NCBI GenBank assembly: GCA_016867815.1
Contig: VGIR01000009.1
Span: 1 to 55,831, forward strand
Reading direction: 5' to 3'
Length of the DNA stretch: 55,831 nt
Origin: a candidate division WOR-3 bacterium
Lineage (GTDB): Bacteria > Hydrothermota > Tepidihabitantia > Tepidihabitantales > Tepidihabitantaceae
Shown: positions 156-54,422 of the stretch, piece by piece
Numbering within the stretch: the first letter of the stretch is position 1
How the letters are laid out: every line of letters begins with the position of its first letter
Program-made: the position numbers and the translations under genes
The notes under the pieces: model-generated
Seen by the model: the letters and a program-made list of their open reading frames with translations, nothing else
Told to the model about the DNA's origin: nothing
Database searches by the model: none

Positions 156-398
156 AGTATCCCTGATTCGCCCGAGGAAGGTCGCTCGGTTGCCAGCACC
201 GCACCTCCGATGTGCTTGTGCACGAGTGAGAACATTAGACCGGTAGCCCGCTTAGTCAAGCTGGTTTGTCAGACGCGTGTGCGTAGGACGGCGATTCTAC
301 AACGCTGTAGGATGGCGCGGAAGCCGAGAATCGGTCTTAAGTTCAGCACTCTCAATTCACTATTCGCTGCTGCCCCGAGATGACTCCCCCGCCCCCCG
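156..398. other. Stretch without a recognisable gene
   Basis: Between the IS end and the first 12-bp repeat tract I see no reading frame with a ribosome binding site, no RNA-like fold and no family resemblance. Confidence 0.5.
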
Positions 399-686
399 GA
401 CAGTATACAGGATTCAGTAGACAGGAGTCAGGGAGGCTGTCTCGGACATTGTCTGGCGGACTCCTTCGTCCTCTGTCCGGAGAGGAGTCTGGAGAAGAGC
501 CTGACCGGGAGTTCCGGAGTCTGTGTGCCAAGCAGCAGGGGATGCAACTCGCCGGTCTGCAGTCCGGGTTCTTCTCCACTGAGTCCGGCCGCTTGTGGCC
601 CGAACAGCAGTCGAGGCAGCAGTCCGGGTTGCGTGCGGGTCAATCTCCGGACTTGCCTGCCGGTCTGTTTCCCGTTCAGTCTTGTT
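399..686 (-). repeat. 12-bp register repeat, tract A
   Basis: Cut into 12-mers from 411, successive units keep a fixed phase for about 23 units, with GTC/GCA at unit positions 5-7 (aggagtcaggga, ctctgtccggag, aggagtctggag, ggcagcagtccg). On the minus strand the units read like CAGGCTCTTCTC and CAGACTCCTCTC, close to the AAAGCTCnnnnn units of the tracts at 818-1141 and 53675-53957. All frames are largely open because the units lack stops, so open frames here are weak evidence of coding. Confidence 0.7.
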
Positions 687-817
687 CGCCGGCCCGCCAA
701 CGCGGGTGGATCGACTGCCGTGTGTGCCGTGAGACGTGCTGGTTTCGGGAGTAATGCGACTTCGTCCATATGTAGTGGTTTAACCGTTTCTGACACAATT
801 CTGCCGTGGGGGGGATG

Positions 818-1141
818 ACCCGGAGGCTGCCTGGTGAGCTGCAGTCGCCGACGCAGTGCCGGATGCACTGACTCATGGAATCACCGGTGCCTTGGCCCGA
901 GAAATGACCCAAGCAATGACGCGAGCTTTTGCTGGTGCAATGACGCGAGCGATTTCGTGAGCTTTGACTTGTGCAATGTCGCGCGCAATGAACGATGGAG
1001 GTTGAGGTCGAGGTTAAGGTCGAGTGCAGGACGGAATCGCCGATGCAGTTGAGTACGCGGTGAACGATGGGTCTGCCGGTGCTTCGACCCATGCTTCGCC
1101 GTGTGCCTAGCGAGGTTCAATCGCGCTTGCGGCGCGAGCTT
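818..1141 (-). repeat. 12-bp register repeat, tract B
   Basis: About 27 consecutive 12-mers stay in phase from 818 to 1141, for example caatgacgcgag at 914-925 and again at 938-949, caatgtcgcgcg at 974-985, gaggttgaggtc at 998-1009 and gaggttaaggtc at 1010-1021. On the minus strand they read AAAGCTCGCGTC, ATCGCTCGCGTC, AAAGCTCACGAA and ATTGCACCAGCA, the same core as the plus-strand tract at 53675-53957. Stops interrupt the frame that would give alanine every fourth residue, so I treat it as non-coding repeat DNA. Confidence 0.8.
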
Positions 1142-23618: not shown

Positions 23619-24074
23619 GTGACGGACCAACGCGCCGCCCGTATCATCGACGTCAATATCAATCGACTGACCGAGGGGCTGCGCGTGGTCGAGGACGTGG
23701 TGCGGCTTGCGCTGGAGGACCGGAGGTTGCTCGTCGGCGTCAGGAAGCTCAGAACCCAGGTCGGACGGGACGTGCGGGTCCTGCGGCGGCAGGTGATTCC
23801 CGGCCGCAAGAGCGAGACCGACCTCGGCCGGGGCGACGGCTTCGACCGGGCCAGACGCCGGAGTCTTGAGGACGTGCTTCTGGCAAACTTCAAGCGTGCC
23901 GAGGAGTCGGCGCGCGTGCTGGAAGAGGTGCTTAAGGTCACGGAGCCGGGGCTGGCCGGCAGGTTCAAGACCCTGCGGTTCAGGCTGTACGACCTTGAAC
24001 GTGAGGCACTGGCCGCAAGTGACGAAGCTCGTGCGCGGCCAAGCTCGAATGACGAAATCCCGAAGCTCGATTGA
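23619..24074 (+). CDS. Stand-alone ThiD2-like domain protein
   Basis: The protein has 151 residues. RIIDVNINRLTEGLRVVEDV followed by a helical body (LEDVLLANFKRAEESARVLE, RFKTLRFRLYDLE) matches the ThiD2 domain, which elsewhere is the N-terminal part of bifunctional thiamine-phosphate synthases and acts on HMP phosphate. The ThiE half is absent here, so it stands alone. The last ~16 residues (SDEARARPSSNDEIPKLD) come from an intergenic-type repeat that has run into the gene. There is no ribosome site before GTG 23619. Confidence 0.65.
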   Translation: MTDQRAARIIDVNINRLTEGLRVVEDVVRLALEDRRLLVGVRKLRTQVGRDVRVLRRQVIPGRKSETDLGRGDGFDRARRRSLEDVLLANFKRAEESARVLEEVLKVTEPGLAGRFKTLRFRLYDLEREALAASDEARARPSSNDEIPKLD

Positions 24075-24152
24075 AACCTGGATGGAGTGGAATCTCCAAT
24101 TCGGACTTCGGGTTTGATTCGTCATTCGTGCATCGGGTTTCGAGCTTTGTCC
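24028..24152. repeat. GAATGACGAA/CGAAGCTCGA repeat, inverted pair
   Basis: Left arm at about 24028-24075 (AAGCTCGAATGACGAAATCC) and a reversed right arm at about 24098-24148 (TTCGGGTTTGATTCGTCATT, then TTTCGAGCTT). The pair can form a long hairpin. It supplies the end of the ThiD2-like gene and lies directly before the recA promoter. The same family recurs at 39057-39215. Confidence 0.7.
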
Positions 24153-24227: not shown

Positions 24228-25325
24228 ATGGCAAAAGATGACGAGAAGACCAGAGCTCTTGGCAGCGCCCTGGGGCAGATTGAGAAGCAGTTCGGCAAAG
24301 GCGCGGTGATGCGCCTGGGCCAGGAAACCCCGGCGGTGAGCGTCGAGGCGATTCCGACCGGCTCGATCGGACTGGATGCGGTGCTTGGCGTAGGCGGAGT
24401 GCCGCGCGGCCGGATTGTTGAAGTCTACGGGCCCGAGGGGTCGGGCAAGACCACGCTTGTCCTCAACATCATCGCCCAGTGCCAGAAGCTCGGCGGGACC
24501 GCGGCGTTCATTGACGCCGAGAATGCGCTCGACCCGAACTACGCCAAGGCGCTCGGCGTGGACCTCGACAGCCTCCTCGTGTCCCAGCCGGACTCAGGCG
24601 AGCAGGCGCTGGAGATTGCCGAGATGCTGACGCGCTCCGGCGGGCTCGACCTGTTCGTCGTGGACTCGGTAGCGGCCCTCGTGCCGCGCGCCGAGATCGA
24701 AGGTGAGATGGGCGATGCGTTCGTCGGCGTCCAGGCGCGGCTGATGTCGCAGGCGATGCGCAAGCTCTCGGGCGTGGCCGCGCGCTCCAAGACCTGCGCC
24801 ATCTTCACCAATCAGATTCGGCAGAAGATCGGCGTGATGTTCGGCAACCCGGAAACGACGACCGGCGGGCTCGCCCTGAAGTTCTACGCGACGATGCGAT
24901 TCGACATCCGGCGCATCGCCGCCATCAAGAAGGAAGAAACCGTCGTCGGCAGCCGGACCCGCGTCAAAGTCGTGAAGAACAAAGTGGCGCCGCCGTTCCG
25001 CGAGGCCGAGTTCGACCTGATCTACGGAGAGGGTATCTCGCGCGCAGGGGAACTCGTGGACATCGGCACCGAGCAGGGCGTCTTCACCAAGTCCGGCACC
25101 TGGTACACGTTCGGTGACATGCGCATCGGCCAGGGCCGCGACGCGGCCGTTGACTTCCTGAGCGAAAACGCACCGGTCATGGCCAAAGCCGAGACCCAGC
25201 TCTACGAGAAGCTGAGGATACCCAAGGCCAGCAAGATCGCTCAGCGCGAAACCGGAGCCGAGGTGGAGCAAGAGGCCACGAAGACGAAGAGACAGGGAGA
25301 AAGGGACAAAGGGAGCAAGGGATAG
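24228..25325 (+). CDS. recA: Recombinase RecA
   Basis: The protein has 365 residues. Walker A GPEGSGKT is at 68-75, Walker [11 protein letters not shown] follows, then L1/L2 loop regions ([30 protein letters not shown]). RecA forms filaments on single-stranded DNA for recombination and SOS signalling. In the highly conserved FIDAEHALDP motif the His is Asn here ([10 protein letters not shown], residue 99); the catalytic Glu is kept. The last ~12 residues ([12 protein letters not shown]) are encoded by an AGGGACAAAGGGA repeat. RecX follows 69 bp downstream. A strong promoter and AGGAGG precede the gene. Confidence 0.97.
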
Positions 25326-25386
25326 AGTGAGGGAATCCGATTCCGGACACTCTGTCCCTCGATCCCTCCATCTCTCTATCCCTTCC
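25290..25386. repeat. AGGGACAAAGGGA-type inverted repeat between recA and recX
   Basis: Left arm about 25290-25335 (GACAGGGAGAAAGGGACAAA), right arm about 25350-25386 (TGTCCCTCGATCCCTCC, CTATCCCTT). The left arm codes the end of RecA. The folded arms could slow polymerase and lower recX relative to recA. The same family appears inside the gene at 52296-53465 (52524-52570). Confidence 0.65.
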
Positions 25387-25394
25387 AACCGGCG

Positions 25395-28785: not shown

Positions 28786-30168
28786 CTACCTCTTAACCGC
28801 GACCCTTCGAGCTGCCTGGGGCCCATGGCCTGAGGCTTGCGGCTCTTCTCGCACGAAGTAGATGCCCGGTATCGGGTGCAGCACGCGCCTGCCCATCGCG
28901 TCGAACGCAATCGCGCCCCGTGGCAGGCTCCCTACCACCGTCGGTTCGAACCTGCGGCTTCGGACCTGAGGCTGTAGGCTCTTCTCCGCCAGGCCCACGA
29001 AGCCGTCGGCGTCCGTCTTGATCAGGTAGACATCGGAATTCCCGGCACCGAAGGACGTGGTGCTGCCGGCGATTACCCAGCCGCCGTCGCCGGTCGACTG
29101 GACGGAGTTCCCTGCATCGTTGCCTGTCCCCCCAAAGGTCCTTGTCCAGACTGTGTCGCCCGAGGCATCTGTCCTGATGAGATAGAGGTCCTGGCCGCCC
29201 GCGCCGAACGAGCGTGTCACGCCGGCAATCACGTAGCCGCCACCGGCCATCGGCTGGACCGAGTTGCCCCAGTCCCGTAGGTTCCCGCCAAAGGTCCTTG
29301 TCCAGACTGTGTCGCCCGAGGCATTCGTCTTGATGAGATAGAGATCCTGGCTCCCGGCGCCGAATGAGCTCGTGTAGCCCGCGATGATGTAGCCACTATC
29401 GGCTGTCTGCCGCACCGAGTGACCTTCATCATTGCTCGTCCCTCCATAGGTCCTGGTCCAGTCTGTATCGCCCGCGGCGTTCGTCTTGATCAGATAGACG
29501 TCTGCGATCCCGGCGCCGATTGAGTGAGTCACACCAGCGACGATATAGCCGCCGTCCACAGTCTGCTGGACTGAGAGCCCTTCATCTCCGCTCGTCCCTC
29601 CATAGGTCCTGGTCCAGTCTGTATCGCCCGCGGCGTTCGTCTTGATCAGATAGACGTCCGCGACCCCGGCGCCAAATGACCAGGTGTAACCGGTGACTAT
29701 GTACCCTCCATCGGCAGTCGGTGCGACCGAGTTGCCCTGCTCGCCGTTTCCTCCACCGTAGGTTCGAGTCCAGACCGTATCACCCTCGGCATCGGTCCTG
29801 ATCAGCCAGACATCATGTCCCCCGGCGCCATAAGAGCCGGTATAGCCGGCAACGACGTAGCCGCTGTCAGCGATCTGACATACCGAGTTTCCCCCGTCCG
29901 GCATGGAATCGCCCCAGACTTCGGCCCAGACCTCCTCGCCTGTGGCATTGGTCTTTACCAGGTAGACATCGGTGACTCCCGCGCCGAACGATGCGGTCGA
30001 ACCGCCGATGACGTACCCGCCTTCAGCAGTCTGCAGGACAGCGTTGCCGATGTCCGACAGGGAATCGCCGTAGGTTTTCCACCAGCTCGACTGGGCAGAC
30101 GCGACGGAAGCAAGGCAACCGGCGAACAGCGCAGCAGCGAGCCCAAATGCGAAGACCGTTTCCTTCAT
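28786..30168 (-). CDS. Secreted protein of seven ~52-residue propeller-type repeats
   Basis: The protein has 460 residues. ATG 30168 follows GGAGGA, and a signal peptide (TVFAFGLAAALFAGCLASVA) precedes SAQSS. Seven repeats share the pattern GGYIVAGxTxSFGAGxxDVYL and IKTNAxGDTxWTRTYGG, likely one blade each of a beta-propeller. The period is 52 residues (156 bp), and neighbouring units are nearly identical in DNA. After the repeats, a short C-terminal part (MGRRVLHPIPGIYFVREEPQ) resembles the end of a FlgD-like module. The last ~15 residues come from a GGCCTGAGGCTTGCGGC-type repeat. Presumably surface or extracellular; function unknown. Confidence 0.75.
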   Translation of the reverse strand: MKETVFAFGLAAALFAGCLASVASAQSSWWKTYGDSLSDIGNAVLQTAEGGYVIGGSTASFGAGVTDVYLVKTNATGEEVWAEVWGDSMPDGGNSVCQIADSGYVVAGYTGSYGAGGHDVWLIRTDAEGDTVWTRTYGGGNGEQGNSVAPTADGGYIVTGYTWSFGAGVADVYLIKTNAAGDTDWTRTYGGTSGDEGLSVQQTVDGGYIVAGVTHSIGAGIADVYLIKTNAAGDTDWTRTYGGTSNDEGHSVRQTADSGYIIAGYTSSFGAGSQDLYLIKTNASGDTVWTRTFGGNLRDWGNSVQPMAGGGYVIAGVTRSFGAGGQDLYLIRTDASGDTVWTRTFGGTGNDAGNSVQSTGDGGWVIAGSTTSFGAGNSDVYLIKTDADGFVGLAEKSLQPQVRSRRFEPTVVGSLPRGAIAFDAMGRRVLHPIPGIYFVREEPQASGHGPQAARRVAVKR

Positions 30169-36220: not shown

Positions 36221-36426
36221 CGCGGTAGTGGACGGCAGATCGCAAGGCACCTGCGCGAGCACGCCTGCGAAGTTCCATGGACCTATCCCCATTTCCGCCG
36301 CTCTTAACGCAGCCTTGGCTCCAACGAACCCTGCCGGCTAGCGGGGCGCACCCACCAATACTGACTCCATCGACACGTCACACTGCCAAGTGACTGGCAG
36401 TACATTTGCGGAAGCAGATCTCCGGG

Positions 36427-36565
36427 CAATCCGCCGTGCAATGTCCGGAGCCACGTCTGGGTCACCGAGGACGGCGAGCCGCGGGGCCAGTCGGGCCGCA
36501 ACGGGTGGACTAGCAGTGACTGCGCCCTGGACAGCAACGGGTGAAGCAACCGTGCAAATAACGGA
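36427..36565 (-). repeat. 12-bp register repeat, tract C
   Basis: Five-base blocks at a fixed 12-bp step: CAATC (36427), CAATG (36439), CCACG (36451), CACCG (36463), CAACG (36499), CAACG (36535), CAACC (36547), TAACG (36559). On the minus strand this gives units such as ATTGCACGGCGG, GTTGCTTCACCC and GTTGCTGTCCAG, matching the core of tracts B and D. It is more decayed than those. Confidence 0.5.
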
Positions 36566-37166
36566 GGCCGCTCATCCGGGAGTTGCAGCGTAGATGGCCC
36601 ACCGAACGATGTATGAAACAACGTCGTCCGGAACCGCCTCGACGACGCGGGGGGCTGTCCCCCGAGCAGTCCCGGGGGCGGGGGGCTAGAGCTTCAGGTC
36701 CAGGGCCCAGTGCTGCAAACAGGTAGAGCAGAAGACACCCCTTCGCGTCACTACCCAGCACGCTAGAATCGCTGTCCGCCGAAGAACGGGAACTCGCCCC
36801 ATTCCCGCCACAGGAGGACCTGCACATATCCCGGAGACGTTGCCTGCCGGAAGTTCGGAAGAGGCTAGACCCGCGCCCGCATCAGTGCCGGTCTCCCCGC
36901 GAGCGGCAGCGCGGTGCTATGCTGTCACCCCCGGTGGCGTCAGACCAGGATGGGTAGATGGTTGCGGATAGAACGGAGATGGGACGCTTCCCGTCCGGTG
37001 CGGATTTCCTGCATTCATCCATTTGACGTCCCTTCGTGCTTCCACTACGTCTTTGCGACGTGACGGAGCCAAGCGCAGGTTTGATTGCAGCACGAATCAC
37101 GAGGAGCAATGCGTACGGCTTCTCTGCAGCTCCGGCATGGGCGGGGCCGCGGGAAGAACCGCGACG
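36566..37166. other. Stretch without a recognisable gene
   Basis: GC-rich, with G/C homopolymer runs around 36648-36690. Open frames exist on both strands but none has a ribosome site or family likeness. Confidence 0.5.
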
Positions 37167-46059: not shown

Positions 46060-46873
46060 ACTCGCGATCCTATGGAAGCCGCTTGTGGCCGCGGTGCTCG
46101 GCGGGCTGGTCTGCGGCGTGGTCGGGGTCTGGGTGGTGCTGATGAACATCCCCTTCGTCGGCGTGGCGATGTCGCACGCGGCCTTTGCGGGCGCGGTCTC
46201 CGGACTGCTGCTCGGCGTCAACCCGCTGCTCGCGGCCGCAACCTTCTGCCTCGCCGCGTCGTTCCTCATCGGCCCGATGGCGGAGCGCGCTGACATCGAG
46301 CCGAACGTCTCGCTCGGCATCATCTTCTCGGTCGTGCTCGGCTTTGCCTTCCTTGCCATCGGCCTGATGCGCGGCCCGCGCGCCGACGCGCTCAGTCTCA
46401 TCTGGGGAAGCATCCTGCTCGTTTCCACGCGCGACCTTGCCCTGATGTCCGGTGCCGCGGCCGCGGTGCTCCTCTTCCTTGGGCTGTTCTACAAGGAAAT
46501 CCAGGCAGTGCTCTACAATCGGGAGATCGCCCGCGCGGTCGGGATACCGGAGCGGGCGCTCTTCTTCGCGATGCTCGTGCTGTGCGGTCTGTCGGTGACC
46601 GCGAACCTGAGCACCATCGGCGGCCTGCTCATCTTCAGCCTCATCGTCAACCCGCCTTCAGCGGCGTACCAGCTAACCTATCGACTTCGGACGATGTACC
46701 TGCTCTCGGCCCTGTTCGGGGTGCTCTCCTGCCTGGCGGGGTTGTTCGTGTCCTGGTTGACCGACGCGCCTGCCGGCGCAGTGATAATCGTCACGTCAAG
46801 CGTTGTATTCGGACTATGCCTGGTTTTCTCGCCGAAGAGGCATACAGGCAAGGGGCTAGGGACTGGGGGCTAG
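46049..46873 (+). CDS. Metal ABC transporter membrane subunit (ZnuB-like, ABC-3 family)
   Basis: The protein has 274 residues. ATG 46049 overlaps the ATPase gene; an upstream reading from 45998 is less likely. About eight hydrophobic segments (VLGGLVCGVVGVWVVLMN, AAFAGAVSGLLLGVNPLL, NVSLGIIFSVVLGFAFLAI, LSTIGGLLIFSLIVNPPSAA) follow the ABC-3 pattern. With the binding protein and ATPase it forms a cluster A-I importer, plausibly for nickel given NikR. Its last residues (GKGLGTGG) and stop lie in a GGGGCTAGGGACT repeat, so the natural C-terminus may have been replaced. Confidence 0.85.
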   Translation: MPPELAILWKPLVAAVLGGLVCGVVGVWVVLMNIPFVGVAMSHAAFAGAVSGLLLGVNPLLAAATFCLAASFLIGPMAERADIEPNVSLGIIFSVVLGFAFLAIGLMRGPRADALSLIWGSILLVSTRDLALMSGAAAAVLLFLGLFYKEIQAVLYNREIARAVGIPERALFFAMLVLCGLSVTANLSTIGGLLIFSLIVNPPSAAYQLTYRLRTMYLLSALFGVLSCLAGLFVSWLTDAPAGAVIIVTSSVVFGLCLVFSPKRHTGKGLGTGG

Positions 46874-46888
46874 GGACTAGGGTTAGGA
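46851..46888. repeat. GGGGCTAGGGACT repeat, left flank of the S23-type gene
   Basis: Tandem units AGGGGCTAGGGACT and GGGGGCTAGGGACTAGGG. It supplies the stop codons of both convergent genes (46873 plus, 46870 minus) and is repeated in inverted orientation at 47274-47310. Confidence 0.75.
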
Positions 46889-47262
46889 ACCCGAGGTGGC
46901 CGACGAAGCGCGCGCACGAGTGCGCTCAGCAGTCGGCCCACGTCCCCGATCTTACTCTGGACCTCATCCACCTGTTCCTGCCGTACGAAGCCTAGCCTCA
47001 CGACGAGGATGGTATACGTTTCCAACTCGACCAGTGATCCCTGGCTGATGGACAGATGATTCAGGAAGACGCGGCGGTGCTGGCAGCCATGCCCTTCAGC
47101 GATATTCGCCTGCACCGACACCGCAGCTCGAGTCATCTGCGATACCGGACCGAAGCGTTCGCTCGCCGGCAATCGTCGCGCGAGCGTGTATGTCAGCTCG
47201 ACCAACGCAGCGGCCTGCTGCCAGACTACAAGGTCCTTGTAGCTCCGGATGGTGGTCGCCAA
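46870..47262 (-). CDS. Four-helix-bundle protein of the S23 / 23S rRNA intervening-sequence family
   Basis: The protein has 130 residues. The TTG start at 47262 is supported by GGAGG and AGGA upstream and by the family N-terminus TIRSYKDLVVWQQAAALVE. Family motifs follow: VSQMTRAAVSVQANIAEGHG and FLNHLSISQGSLVELETY. These small helical proteins were first seen in rRNA intervening sequences but occur widely as stand-alone genes of unknown function. The gene is enclosed by inverted GGGGCTAGGGACT repeats and wedged between the ends of two other genes, so it looks like an inserted cassette. Confidence 0.85.
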   Translation of the reverse strand: MATTIRSYKDLVVWQQAAALVELTYTLARRLPASERFGPVSQMTRAAVSVQANIAEGHGCQHRRVFLNHLSISQGSLVELETYTILVVRLGFVRQEQVDEVQSKIGDVGRLLSALVRALRRPPRVPNPSP

Positions 47263-47273
47263 GTTTCCTGTAC

Positions 47274-47310
47274 CTCCCTAACCCCTATCCCCTAACCCCT
47301 AGTCCCTGTC
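47274..47310. repeat. CCCCTAACCCCTAGTCCCT repeat, right flank of the S23-type gene
   Basis: Inverted copy of the repeat at 46851-46888. It ends directly at the pckA stop codon (47311-47313). Confidence 0.75.
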
Positions 47311-53465: not shown

Positions 53466-53674
53466 AATTGTCCTTTCATCGCTGACTCTCGGTGCAATGC
53501 TACTCCTGCCCGCGCGCCGGTCAACGACGACCAGTCGTCGCCGCTCGACGTCCGCATCCCTTCCGCCACTCGATCCCTCGGTCTCTCGTCCACTACCCCG
53601 AGGCCCGATTCCGTTTCACTTCTGCGTTCTGGCTTCTGAAGTCTGGCCTCCGACTTCGCCAGATCCTAAGGATC

Positions 53675-53957
53675 ATCCCTCTCTTCAAAGCTCCCCCGAA
53701 AGCTCGTCTCAGAGCTCGCGGGAAGGCATCTTAAGTTGCATGCTCAAGAGTGTGCTTCACAGCATTTTCCATTGCTCATCTCAATGCTCGTCACATCGCA
53801 TCGCGCATCGCCCGTCTCAAAGCTCAGCGCATTGCTTCTTTCATCGCTTGCCTGAAAGCTCAGTCGCAAGCTCGCGTCAAAGCTCCTCTGAAAGCTTCAT
53901 TCAAAGCCCATTTCAAGGCTCGTTTGATGGCTTCTTCGAAAGCTCCTCAAAGGGCTA
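53675..53957 (+). repeat. 12-bp register repeat, tract D
   Basis: From 53687, 23 successive 12-mers begin with a core close to AAAGCTC, without a single register slip: AAAGCTC at 53687, 53699, 53819, 53855, 53879 and 53939; AGAGCTC at 53711; ATTGCTC at 53771; AATGCTC at 53783; CAAGCTC at 53867; AAAGCCC at 53903; AAGGCTC at 53915. Unit positions 4-5 (GC) are almost invariant. In one plus frame this places Ala at every fourth codon from about 53762 to 53960. The same repeat occurs on the minus strand in tracts A-C. Confidence 0.9.
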
Positions 53958-54422
53958 GCCCCCAGGCGACCCCTATGTGCGGACTTCCCGCTACCTGGCA
54001 GGGCTTAATCGACTGATTGTGCTGAAGTTATGCTCTATTGCAGAGAGACGCTAATCCCCCAGTTCTTTCTGCCAATCTTGGCCCGAAATCCGCCCAACCG
54101 AGCGATAGAGATCGCCTGTTGTGTCACCGCGGTTATTGCGACTTTGCGCGGCAGCTTCACCGCCTTTCGCGGATTCGAACCATCTCAGGCTCGACGCTCG
54201 CGAAGTAGGCTCAGGTGCTGCTTGAGAAGTGGCAGAGCCGCGGCCTCAGCCCGTACGTGCTCGCCGCCATCCGCACCACGGTGATGAATGTCCGCGCGCC
54301 AGCGCCATAGTGGATGGTCGCCTTCCGCTTGGCCAAGGGGCGCAAGCTGTGAGCTGAGAGCCATCGGCCCAACTGCGCTTGAAAGCGCGTTGCCCCGGGA
54401 GTAACTAGATGCGTCGCAGAAT
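53958..54422. other. Stretch without a recognisable gene
   Basis: No frame with a ribosome site. A plus-strand segment around 54205-54310 reads LLEKWQSRGLSPYVLAAIRT in one frame and could be a gene remnant, but I cannot place it. The adjoining 53466-53674 holds only fragments of GATCCCTC-type and CTTCTGAAGTCTGG-type repeats. Confidence 0.45.

What the first reader, a model, noticed from the sequence alone, without database searches (positions are those of the whole stretch)
53675..53957. Degenerate 12-bp repeat kept in perfect register for 23 units (tract D)
AAAGCTC-like cores recur at exactly 12-bp steps from 53687 to 53951 with many substitutions and no indel. Ordinary minisatellites this diverged usually show unit-length changes. 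Fixed GC at unit positions 4-5 with drift elsewhere suggests constraint on spacing, for example phased protein binding, a structural array, or a tetrapeptide-coding constraint. I know of no described element of this kind.
Basis: seen in the sequence. Interest (0 to 1): 0.85.

Follow-up and report, generated by a model that had tools for sequence, protein, structure and literature searches.

The report
Phase-locked 12-bp intergenic repeat arrays
The tract is a non-coding array of a degenerate 12-base motif, one of a large set of such arrays between the genes of this uncultured bacterial genus and some relatives; point changes accumulate in it but the 12-base spacing never slips, which suggests that something reads the spacing.

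Summary
Tract D (53675-53962) keeps a 12-bp register for 23 units: lag-12 identity is 0.53, against 0.26±0.03 in shuffles. GC stands at unit positions 4-5 in 22 of 23 units.

It is not unique. D belongs to a dispersed family of about 24 units of A..GCT[CT], phase-locked to a 118-bp module downstream (53964-54081). Forty-six copies were analysed from five genomes of one genus. None has a clear register-breaking indel; lengths differ only by whole units. At the neutral indel rate measured here I would expect 20-50. Core positions (1,4,5,6) diverge 3-5 times more slowly than positions 8-11, also between copies at an orthologous site in two species.

Protein coding is rejected: stops in all six frames, pN/pS about 0.6-1.2. 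Rfam, conserved folding and a sense-strand Rho-terminator placement found no support.

Sister genome G002 holds about one 12-bp array per 13-17 kb, mostly intergenic, with unrelated unit sequences but the same period. Some other genera of the family have them; others do not.

I found no described equivalent. Best reading: a DNA lattice for a head-to-tail binding protein, with the module as nucleation or anchor site. The reader protein is unknown, so the mechanism is inferred.

The parts
53675..53962 (+). Tract D: array of degenerate 12-bp units, core A..GCT[CT]
   Evidence: Lag-12 and unit counts; 46 homologous copies in register
53964..54081 (+). Conserved 118-bp module at the 3' end of the array (GGCGACCCCTATGTGCGG ... 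AGTTATGC ... CAGTTCTTTC)
   Evidence: Alignment A1 of 24 copies; array-module distance 1 mod 12 in 27 copies; internal anchor distance 92 bp in 24 of 25 copies
397..690 (-). Tract A: 12-bp periodic array of another unit type (CGG-ending units on the minus strand), with a header like that of G002 arrays L193 and L205
   Evidence: Lag-12 multiples are the top lags; listed as period 12; the header resemblance was read by eye
757..815 (.). Short module between tracts A and B (TATGTAGTGG...ACAATTCTG), also found between two 12-bp arrays in G003
   Evidence: Sequence comparison, by eye
829..1110 (-). Tract B: 12-bp array, unit about ATTGCTCGCGTC on the minus strand, related to the tract D unit
   Evidence: matches of the D-type unit pattern at 912-965
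36400..36640 (.). Tract C: weak 12-bp periodicity, not certain
   Evidence: Lag-12 0.39 and lag-48 0.42; not listed by the threshold scan

Best explanation
Tract D is one copy of a dispersed, non-coding, intergenic DNA element with two parts: a lattice of about 24 degenerate 12-bp units (core A..GCT[CT], freer positions 8-11) and a 118-bp module held in fixed phase with the lattice. Shown here: the family, the register, the core constraint, the phase-lock, the absence of coding, and the presence of other 12-bp arrays with different unit sequences. Inferred: the register is kept because copies of a DNA-binding protein load head to tail, one per 12 bp, with the module as nucleation or anchor site. 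Such a nucleoprotein filament could act in chromosome organisation or local silencing. The binding protein has not been identified.
For: No clear register-breaking indel in 46 copies, where 20-51 would be expected from at least 1014 substitutions at the non-coding indel ratios. Core positions change 3-5 times less often than positions 8-11 at every level of divergence, and in an orthologous pair (7 of 76 against 24 of 76, p 0.001) whose adjacent spacer carries several indels. Array and module are in one phase in 27 of 27 copies, and a second family (E) is phase-locked to its own module in 8 copies. No coding, no conserved RNA fold.
Against: No reader protein was found or sought by experiment. 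Unit sequences differ strongly between array families, which one protein could hardly read. Families turn over between species and sites can be empty or hold other arrays, which also fits selfish elements. The module itself has few indels, so low indel rates may not be special to the array.
Confidence: 0.4

Rival explanations
1. Selfish or mobile satellites: the arrays are parts of non-autonomous mobile elements whose mobility machinery needs intact in-phase units (iteron-like binding sites), so only in-register copies spread.
For: Dispersed multicopy family restricted to one genus; families differ between species; in G003 the array of L116 lies directly before an ORF that I read as a Y1-type (REP-associated) transposase; G+C-rich hairpins lie near 6 of 29 G002 arrays against 0.04 expected per array.
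Against: An orthologous copy is kept in two species with the core still constrained, and close pairs show the same bias, which dead copies should not. No target duplications or defined 5' end were seen. Only one array of those examined lies by such an ORF.
Confidence: 0.22
2. Repeat RNA: the array and module are transcribed, and a protein or a partner RNA reads the 12-nt units in RNA.
For: The array-module orientation is constant, and a fixed 12-nt spacing could serve a filament-forming RNA-binding protein.
Against: No Rfam match above gathering score, no conserved fold in the module, variable 5' end without a common upstream sequence, and no promoter-like or terminator-like site that would delimit such a transcript (that scan covers sigma-70 types only).
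Confidence: 0.15
3. Neutral satellites in a lineage that rarely makes small indels: unit slippage gives whole-unit changes and nothing selects the register.
For: Tandem arrays change length by unit slippage; the module and part of the flanks also show few indels.
Against: Non-coding orthologues and the spacer beyond the module show about one indel per 21-25 substitutions, so 40-50 would be expected. Neutral drift does not explain the slow core.
Confidence: 0.12
4. Rho utilisation sites: C-rich units spaced 12 nt apart bind Rho and end transcription.
For: Many arrays have more C than G on one strand; spaced YC dinucleotides are a known feature of rut sites (from my own knowledge).
Against: On G002 contig C81 the gene upstream of the C-rich strand runs in the same direction in only 5 of 17 intergenic cases with a gene on both sides (crude gene calls), many arrays have almost no skew, and rut sites do not need an exact register.
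Confidence: 0.05
5. Tetrapeptide-coding repeat: the register is a reading frame.
For: 12 bases are four codons; frames KAxx and SSxS are open over parts of many copies.
Against: No frame is open in more than 12 of 46 copies over the full array, and pN/pS is 0.69-1.05 in all six frames. Over the last 17 units and the module it is 0.56-1.17 and no frame is open in most copies. Rates do not follow codon positions. A stop in the KAxx frame recurs at the same unit in many copies.
Confidence: 0.03

Closest known systems
Plasmid centromere iterons with head-to-tail binding proteins (omega/parS heptads of pSM19035; TubR/tubC)
   Same: Contiguous short direct repeats, on which a small DNA-binding protein assembles into a filament (review PMC5016525).
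   Different: Those are a few clusters with fewer repeats on a plasmid beside their own operon. Here there are tens of copies of one family and many other families in the chromosome, about 24 more degenerate units each, and no known protein.
BldC-type head-to-tail binding to direct repeats (Streptomyces)
   Same: A regulator that binds direct repeats co-operatively; a paper on it came up in the search (PMC6428758), which I did not read beyond its listing.
   Different: By my own knowledge those sites are short promoters sites; here arrays are near 300 bp and many lie away from any identified promoter.
Short tandemly repeated repetitive (STRR) sequences of filamentous cyanobacteria
   Same: Short-unit tandem repeats in intergenic regions of one bacterial group (PMC2670836).
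   Different: By my own knowledge STRR units are near-identical heptamers; here units are 12 bp, strongly degenerate, and phase-locked to a module.
REP sequences mobilised by Y1 transposases (RAYT)
   Same: Dispersed intergenic elements with short palindromes near some arrays.
   Different: The body is a 12-bp array; hairpins lie beside only some families, and one array of those examined lies by a Y1-like ORF.

Membership tests
Coding tandem repeat (tetrapeptide) | One open frame with purifying selection on the protein | tested here: not met
   Stops in all frames and pN/pS 0.56-1.17
Ordinary minisatellite | Neutral change, including unit-length and small indels | tested here: not met
   No clear register-breaking indel in 46 copies; slow core positions
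Centromere-type iterons with filament-forming binding protein | Contiguous short direct repeats with a constrained core | tested here: met
Centromere-type iterons with filament-forming binding protein | A cognate binding protein, usually encoded next to the site | not tested
   No candidate was searched for; the neighbours of tract D are a saccharopine-dehydrogenase-like gene and a DUF2225-like gene, named from reading the ORFs
Structured non-coding RNA | Conserved secondary structure or a known family | tested here: not met
   module only for folding
Rho utilisation site | Downstream of genes in the sense direction | tested here: not met
   crude gene calls
Mobile element (REP/MITE-like) | Terminal structure, target duplication, empty sites | tested here: inconclusive
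   Variable 5' end and subfamily-dependent 3' end; gene order differs at the tract D locus in G002, so no clean empty site

The most novel reading that the evidence does not exclude
A bacterial family uses a 12-bp phase itself as the code: hundreds of intergenic lattices with freely changing unit sequences but an invariant 12-bp register, locked to nucleation modules, organise the chromosome through a nucleoprotein filament of a kind not yet described.
Probability: 0.2. Interest if true: 0.9.

Novelty: new variant of a known kind. Interest (0 to 1): 0.66.

Why it matters
Bacterial intergenic repeats are usually short palindromes, mobile elements or near-perfect satellites. A class in which sequence drifts but a 12-bp register does not, across many unrelated unit families, points to an unknown machinery that reads spacing. 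It offers a direct handle, array duplex pull-down, to find that machinery. Several copies lie at contig ends, so the class is probably under-represented in genomes built from metagenomes.

Tried and rejected
Tetrapeptide coding. Rho terminator orientation. Known RNA families and consensus folding. Sigma-70 promoters or intrinsic terminators at the tract (one promoter-like site at 53497-53524 on the minus strand and one terminator-like site at 54102-54115, neither overlapping tract or module). Integron attC: CTTAAC/GTTAYGC in the module resembles attC boxes, but by my recollection of attC spacing the boxes are too close (about 31 bp), and cassette arrays were not looked for. Shared flanking motif for all array families: none found. 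G+C-rich hairpins: near 6 of 29 arrays in G002 but not general. Sequence-level gap counts inside arrays (last line) were discarded as alignment artefacts in favour of phase tests.

Full report
Check of the observation. Tract D shows lag-12 identity of 0.53, far outside 2000 dinucleotide-preserving shuffles (mean 0.257, sd 0.029, maximum 0.369), with similar signal at 24 to 60. Of 23 units, 22 carry GC at positions 4-5 and 21 carry A at position 1. No indel interrupts the register. TRF does not report it. Two further tracts in the window have clear 12-bp periodicity (A about 400-690, and B 829-1110 with a related unit on the minus strand), and a third (36400-36640) is weak.

It is a family. BLAST of tract D against the own genome finds five more strong copies at 70-86% identity. 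One of those copies as query finds matches in all five sister genomes of the genus (only weak ones in G001) and in none of 35 genomes of other genera. With 17 bases of the module as pattern and one mismatch, there are 2 to 25 sites per genome of the genus, 25 in G002, and none in four genomes of other genera. The copies share about 24 units, largely unit for unit, and many share a conserved 3' module beginning GGCGACCCCTATATGCGG. In the window the module is 53964-54081.

The register. In 46 copies all arrays keep one phase: 285 of 294 blocks of 48 bp score best in the expected phase, and only one end block deviates clearly. Net length differences between copies are multiples of 12. The module sits at 1 mod 12 from the array in all 27 copies measured. 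Nearest-neighbour divergence gives at least 1014 substitutions on terminal branches. The non-coding indel ratio was about 1 per 21 substitutions in orthologous regions, a rough figure because one coding region was counted as non-coding, and about 1 per 25 in the spacer beyond the module of the same family. At 1:20 to 1:50 this predicts 51 to 20 indels. The module too has few length changes: 24 of 25 copies have the same 92-bp anchor distance.

The core. Divergence between homologous units is lowest at positions 1, 4, 5 and 6 and highest at 8-11, in every identity bin including pairs at least 90% identical: 0.032 against 0.111. Differences between close pairs are mostly scattered single changes. 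An orthologous pair, L002 in the own genome and L112 in G003, lies a short way downstream of the same gene (78-88% identical per 120-bp block). There the array is 78% identical over 19 units with no indel other than one whole 12-bp unit, while the short spacer between gene and array carries several indels. Changes fall on 7 of 76 core positions against 24 of 76 of positions 8-11, p 0.001. The distal part of that array in L112 has been replaced by a 6-bp repeat.

Not coding, not a known RNA. All six frames contain stops in most copies and pN/pS lies between 0.69 and 1.05. Restricted to the 17 units next to the module, and to the module, no frame looks coding. Rates do not follow codon positions. 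Rfam gives nothing above gathering score, the module has no conserved fold, and the simple promoter and terminator scans have no site overlapping the tract or module.

A wider class. A period scan of 400 kb of G002 gave 38 arrays, 27 with period 12 or 24, none in shuffled sequence. A second scan with a slightly different rule gave 24 of 46 at period 12. That is about one per 15-17 kb; counting the period-6 arrays of the second scan, which are often 12-bp arrays with a half-period, about one per 14 kb. Unit sequences differ widely, for example AGTGACTTGCC., GGTTGCTC.CC. and C.GC..CCG..C. On one 320-kb contig, 19 of 24 were intergenic by crude gene calling. Another family (E) is phase-locked to its own GGGGG-loop-CCCCC module in 8 separate copies. 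Among other genera of the family, 12-bp arrays were present in G007, G008 and the g7 samples and absent in G006 and G012. None was seen in about 160 kb from other families of the class. These samples are small except G006 and G007 (about 200 kb each).

Turnover. At the orthologue of the tract D locus, G002 and G001 have no array within the stretch read, and G003 has two other 12-bp arrays around a module that resembles the one between window tracts A and B. So sites can be kept (L002/L112) or replaced.

Mechanism. The data show constraint on register and on a core at each unit. I infer a DNA lattice read by a head-to-tail binding protein with the module as nucleation or anchor site. The nearest analogues are plasmid centromere iterons such as omega/parS and TubR/tubC (review PMC5016525). 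The weak points are that no protein is known and that unit sequences vary between families. The main rivals are selfish elements whose spread needs intact arrays, repeat RNAs, and neutral satellites in a lineage poor in small indels.

Novelty. Literature searches in the open library returned no description of such arrays. The library is incomplete, so this is weak evidence. I rate it a new variant of dispersed intergenic tandem repeats, with a lesser chance that the class is new in kind.

Limits. Copies within a family are not independent, so the counts behind the probabilities are rough. Gene calls for orientation were crude. The search for the family started from BLAST, which can find copies with small gaps but would lose strongly broken ones.

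Noticed in passing
L116, just after the array (G003 contig C14): An open frame directly after the array reads like a Y1-type, REP-associated transposase; by eye, no family search was run.
   Followed up: no
window 24040-24150, 25291-25387, 28787-28944: Short intergenic stretches with many partial matches dispersed in all five sister genomes: other repeat families.
   Followed up: no
window 1000-1026; L112 and L118 arrays: Runs of a 6-bp repeat (AACCTC type) are set into 12-bp arrays.
   Followed up: partly
L094, L099, L103, L104, L107, L110, after the D module: A second 12-bp array family (E) with its own GGGGG-loop-CCCCC header follows the D module within about 300 bp in several G002 copies.
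   Followed up: partly
G000 contigs C26, C37, C46, C57, C75, C109, C170: 12-bp arrays lie within about 50-1000 bp of contig ends, so they probably break the assembly.
   Followed up: no
G002 stretches L193, L194, L201, L202, L204, L209, L210: Arrays with a 7-bp period are the second commonest class in G002.
   Followed up: no
window 46851-47306: A 14-bp repeat (AGGGGCTAGGGACT and a related unit) flanks an ORF that looks like a four-helix-bundle (23S intervening sequence) protein.
   Followed up: no
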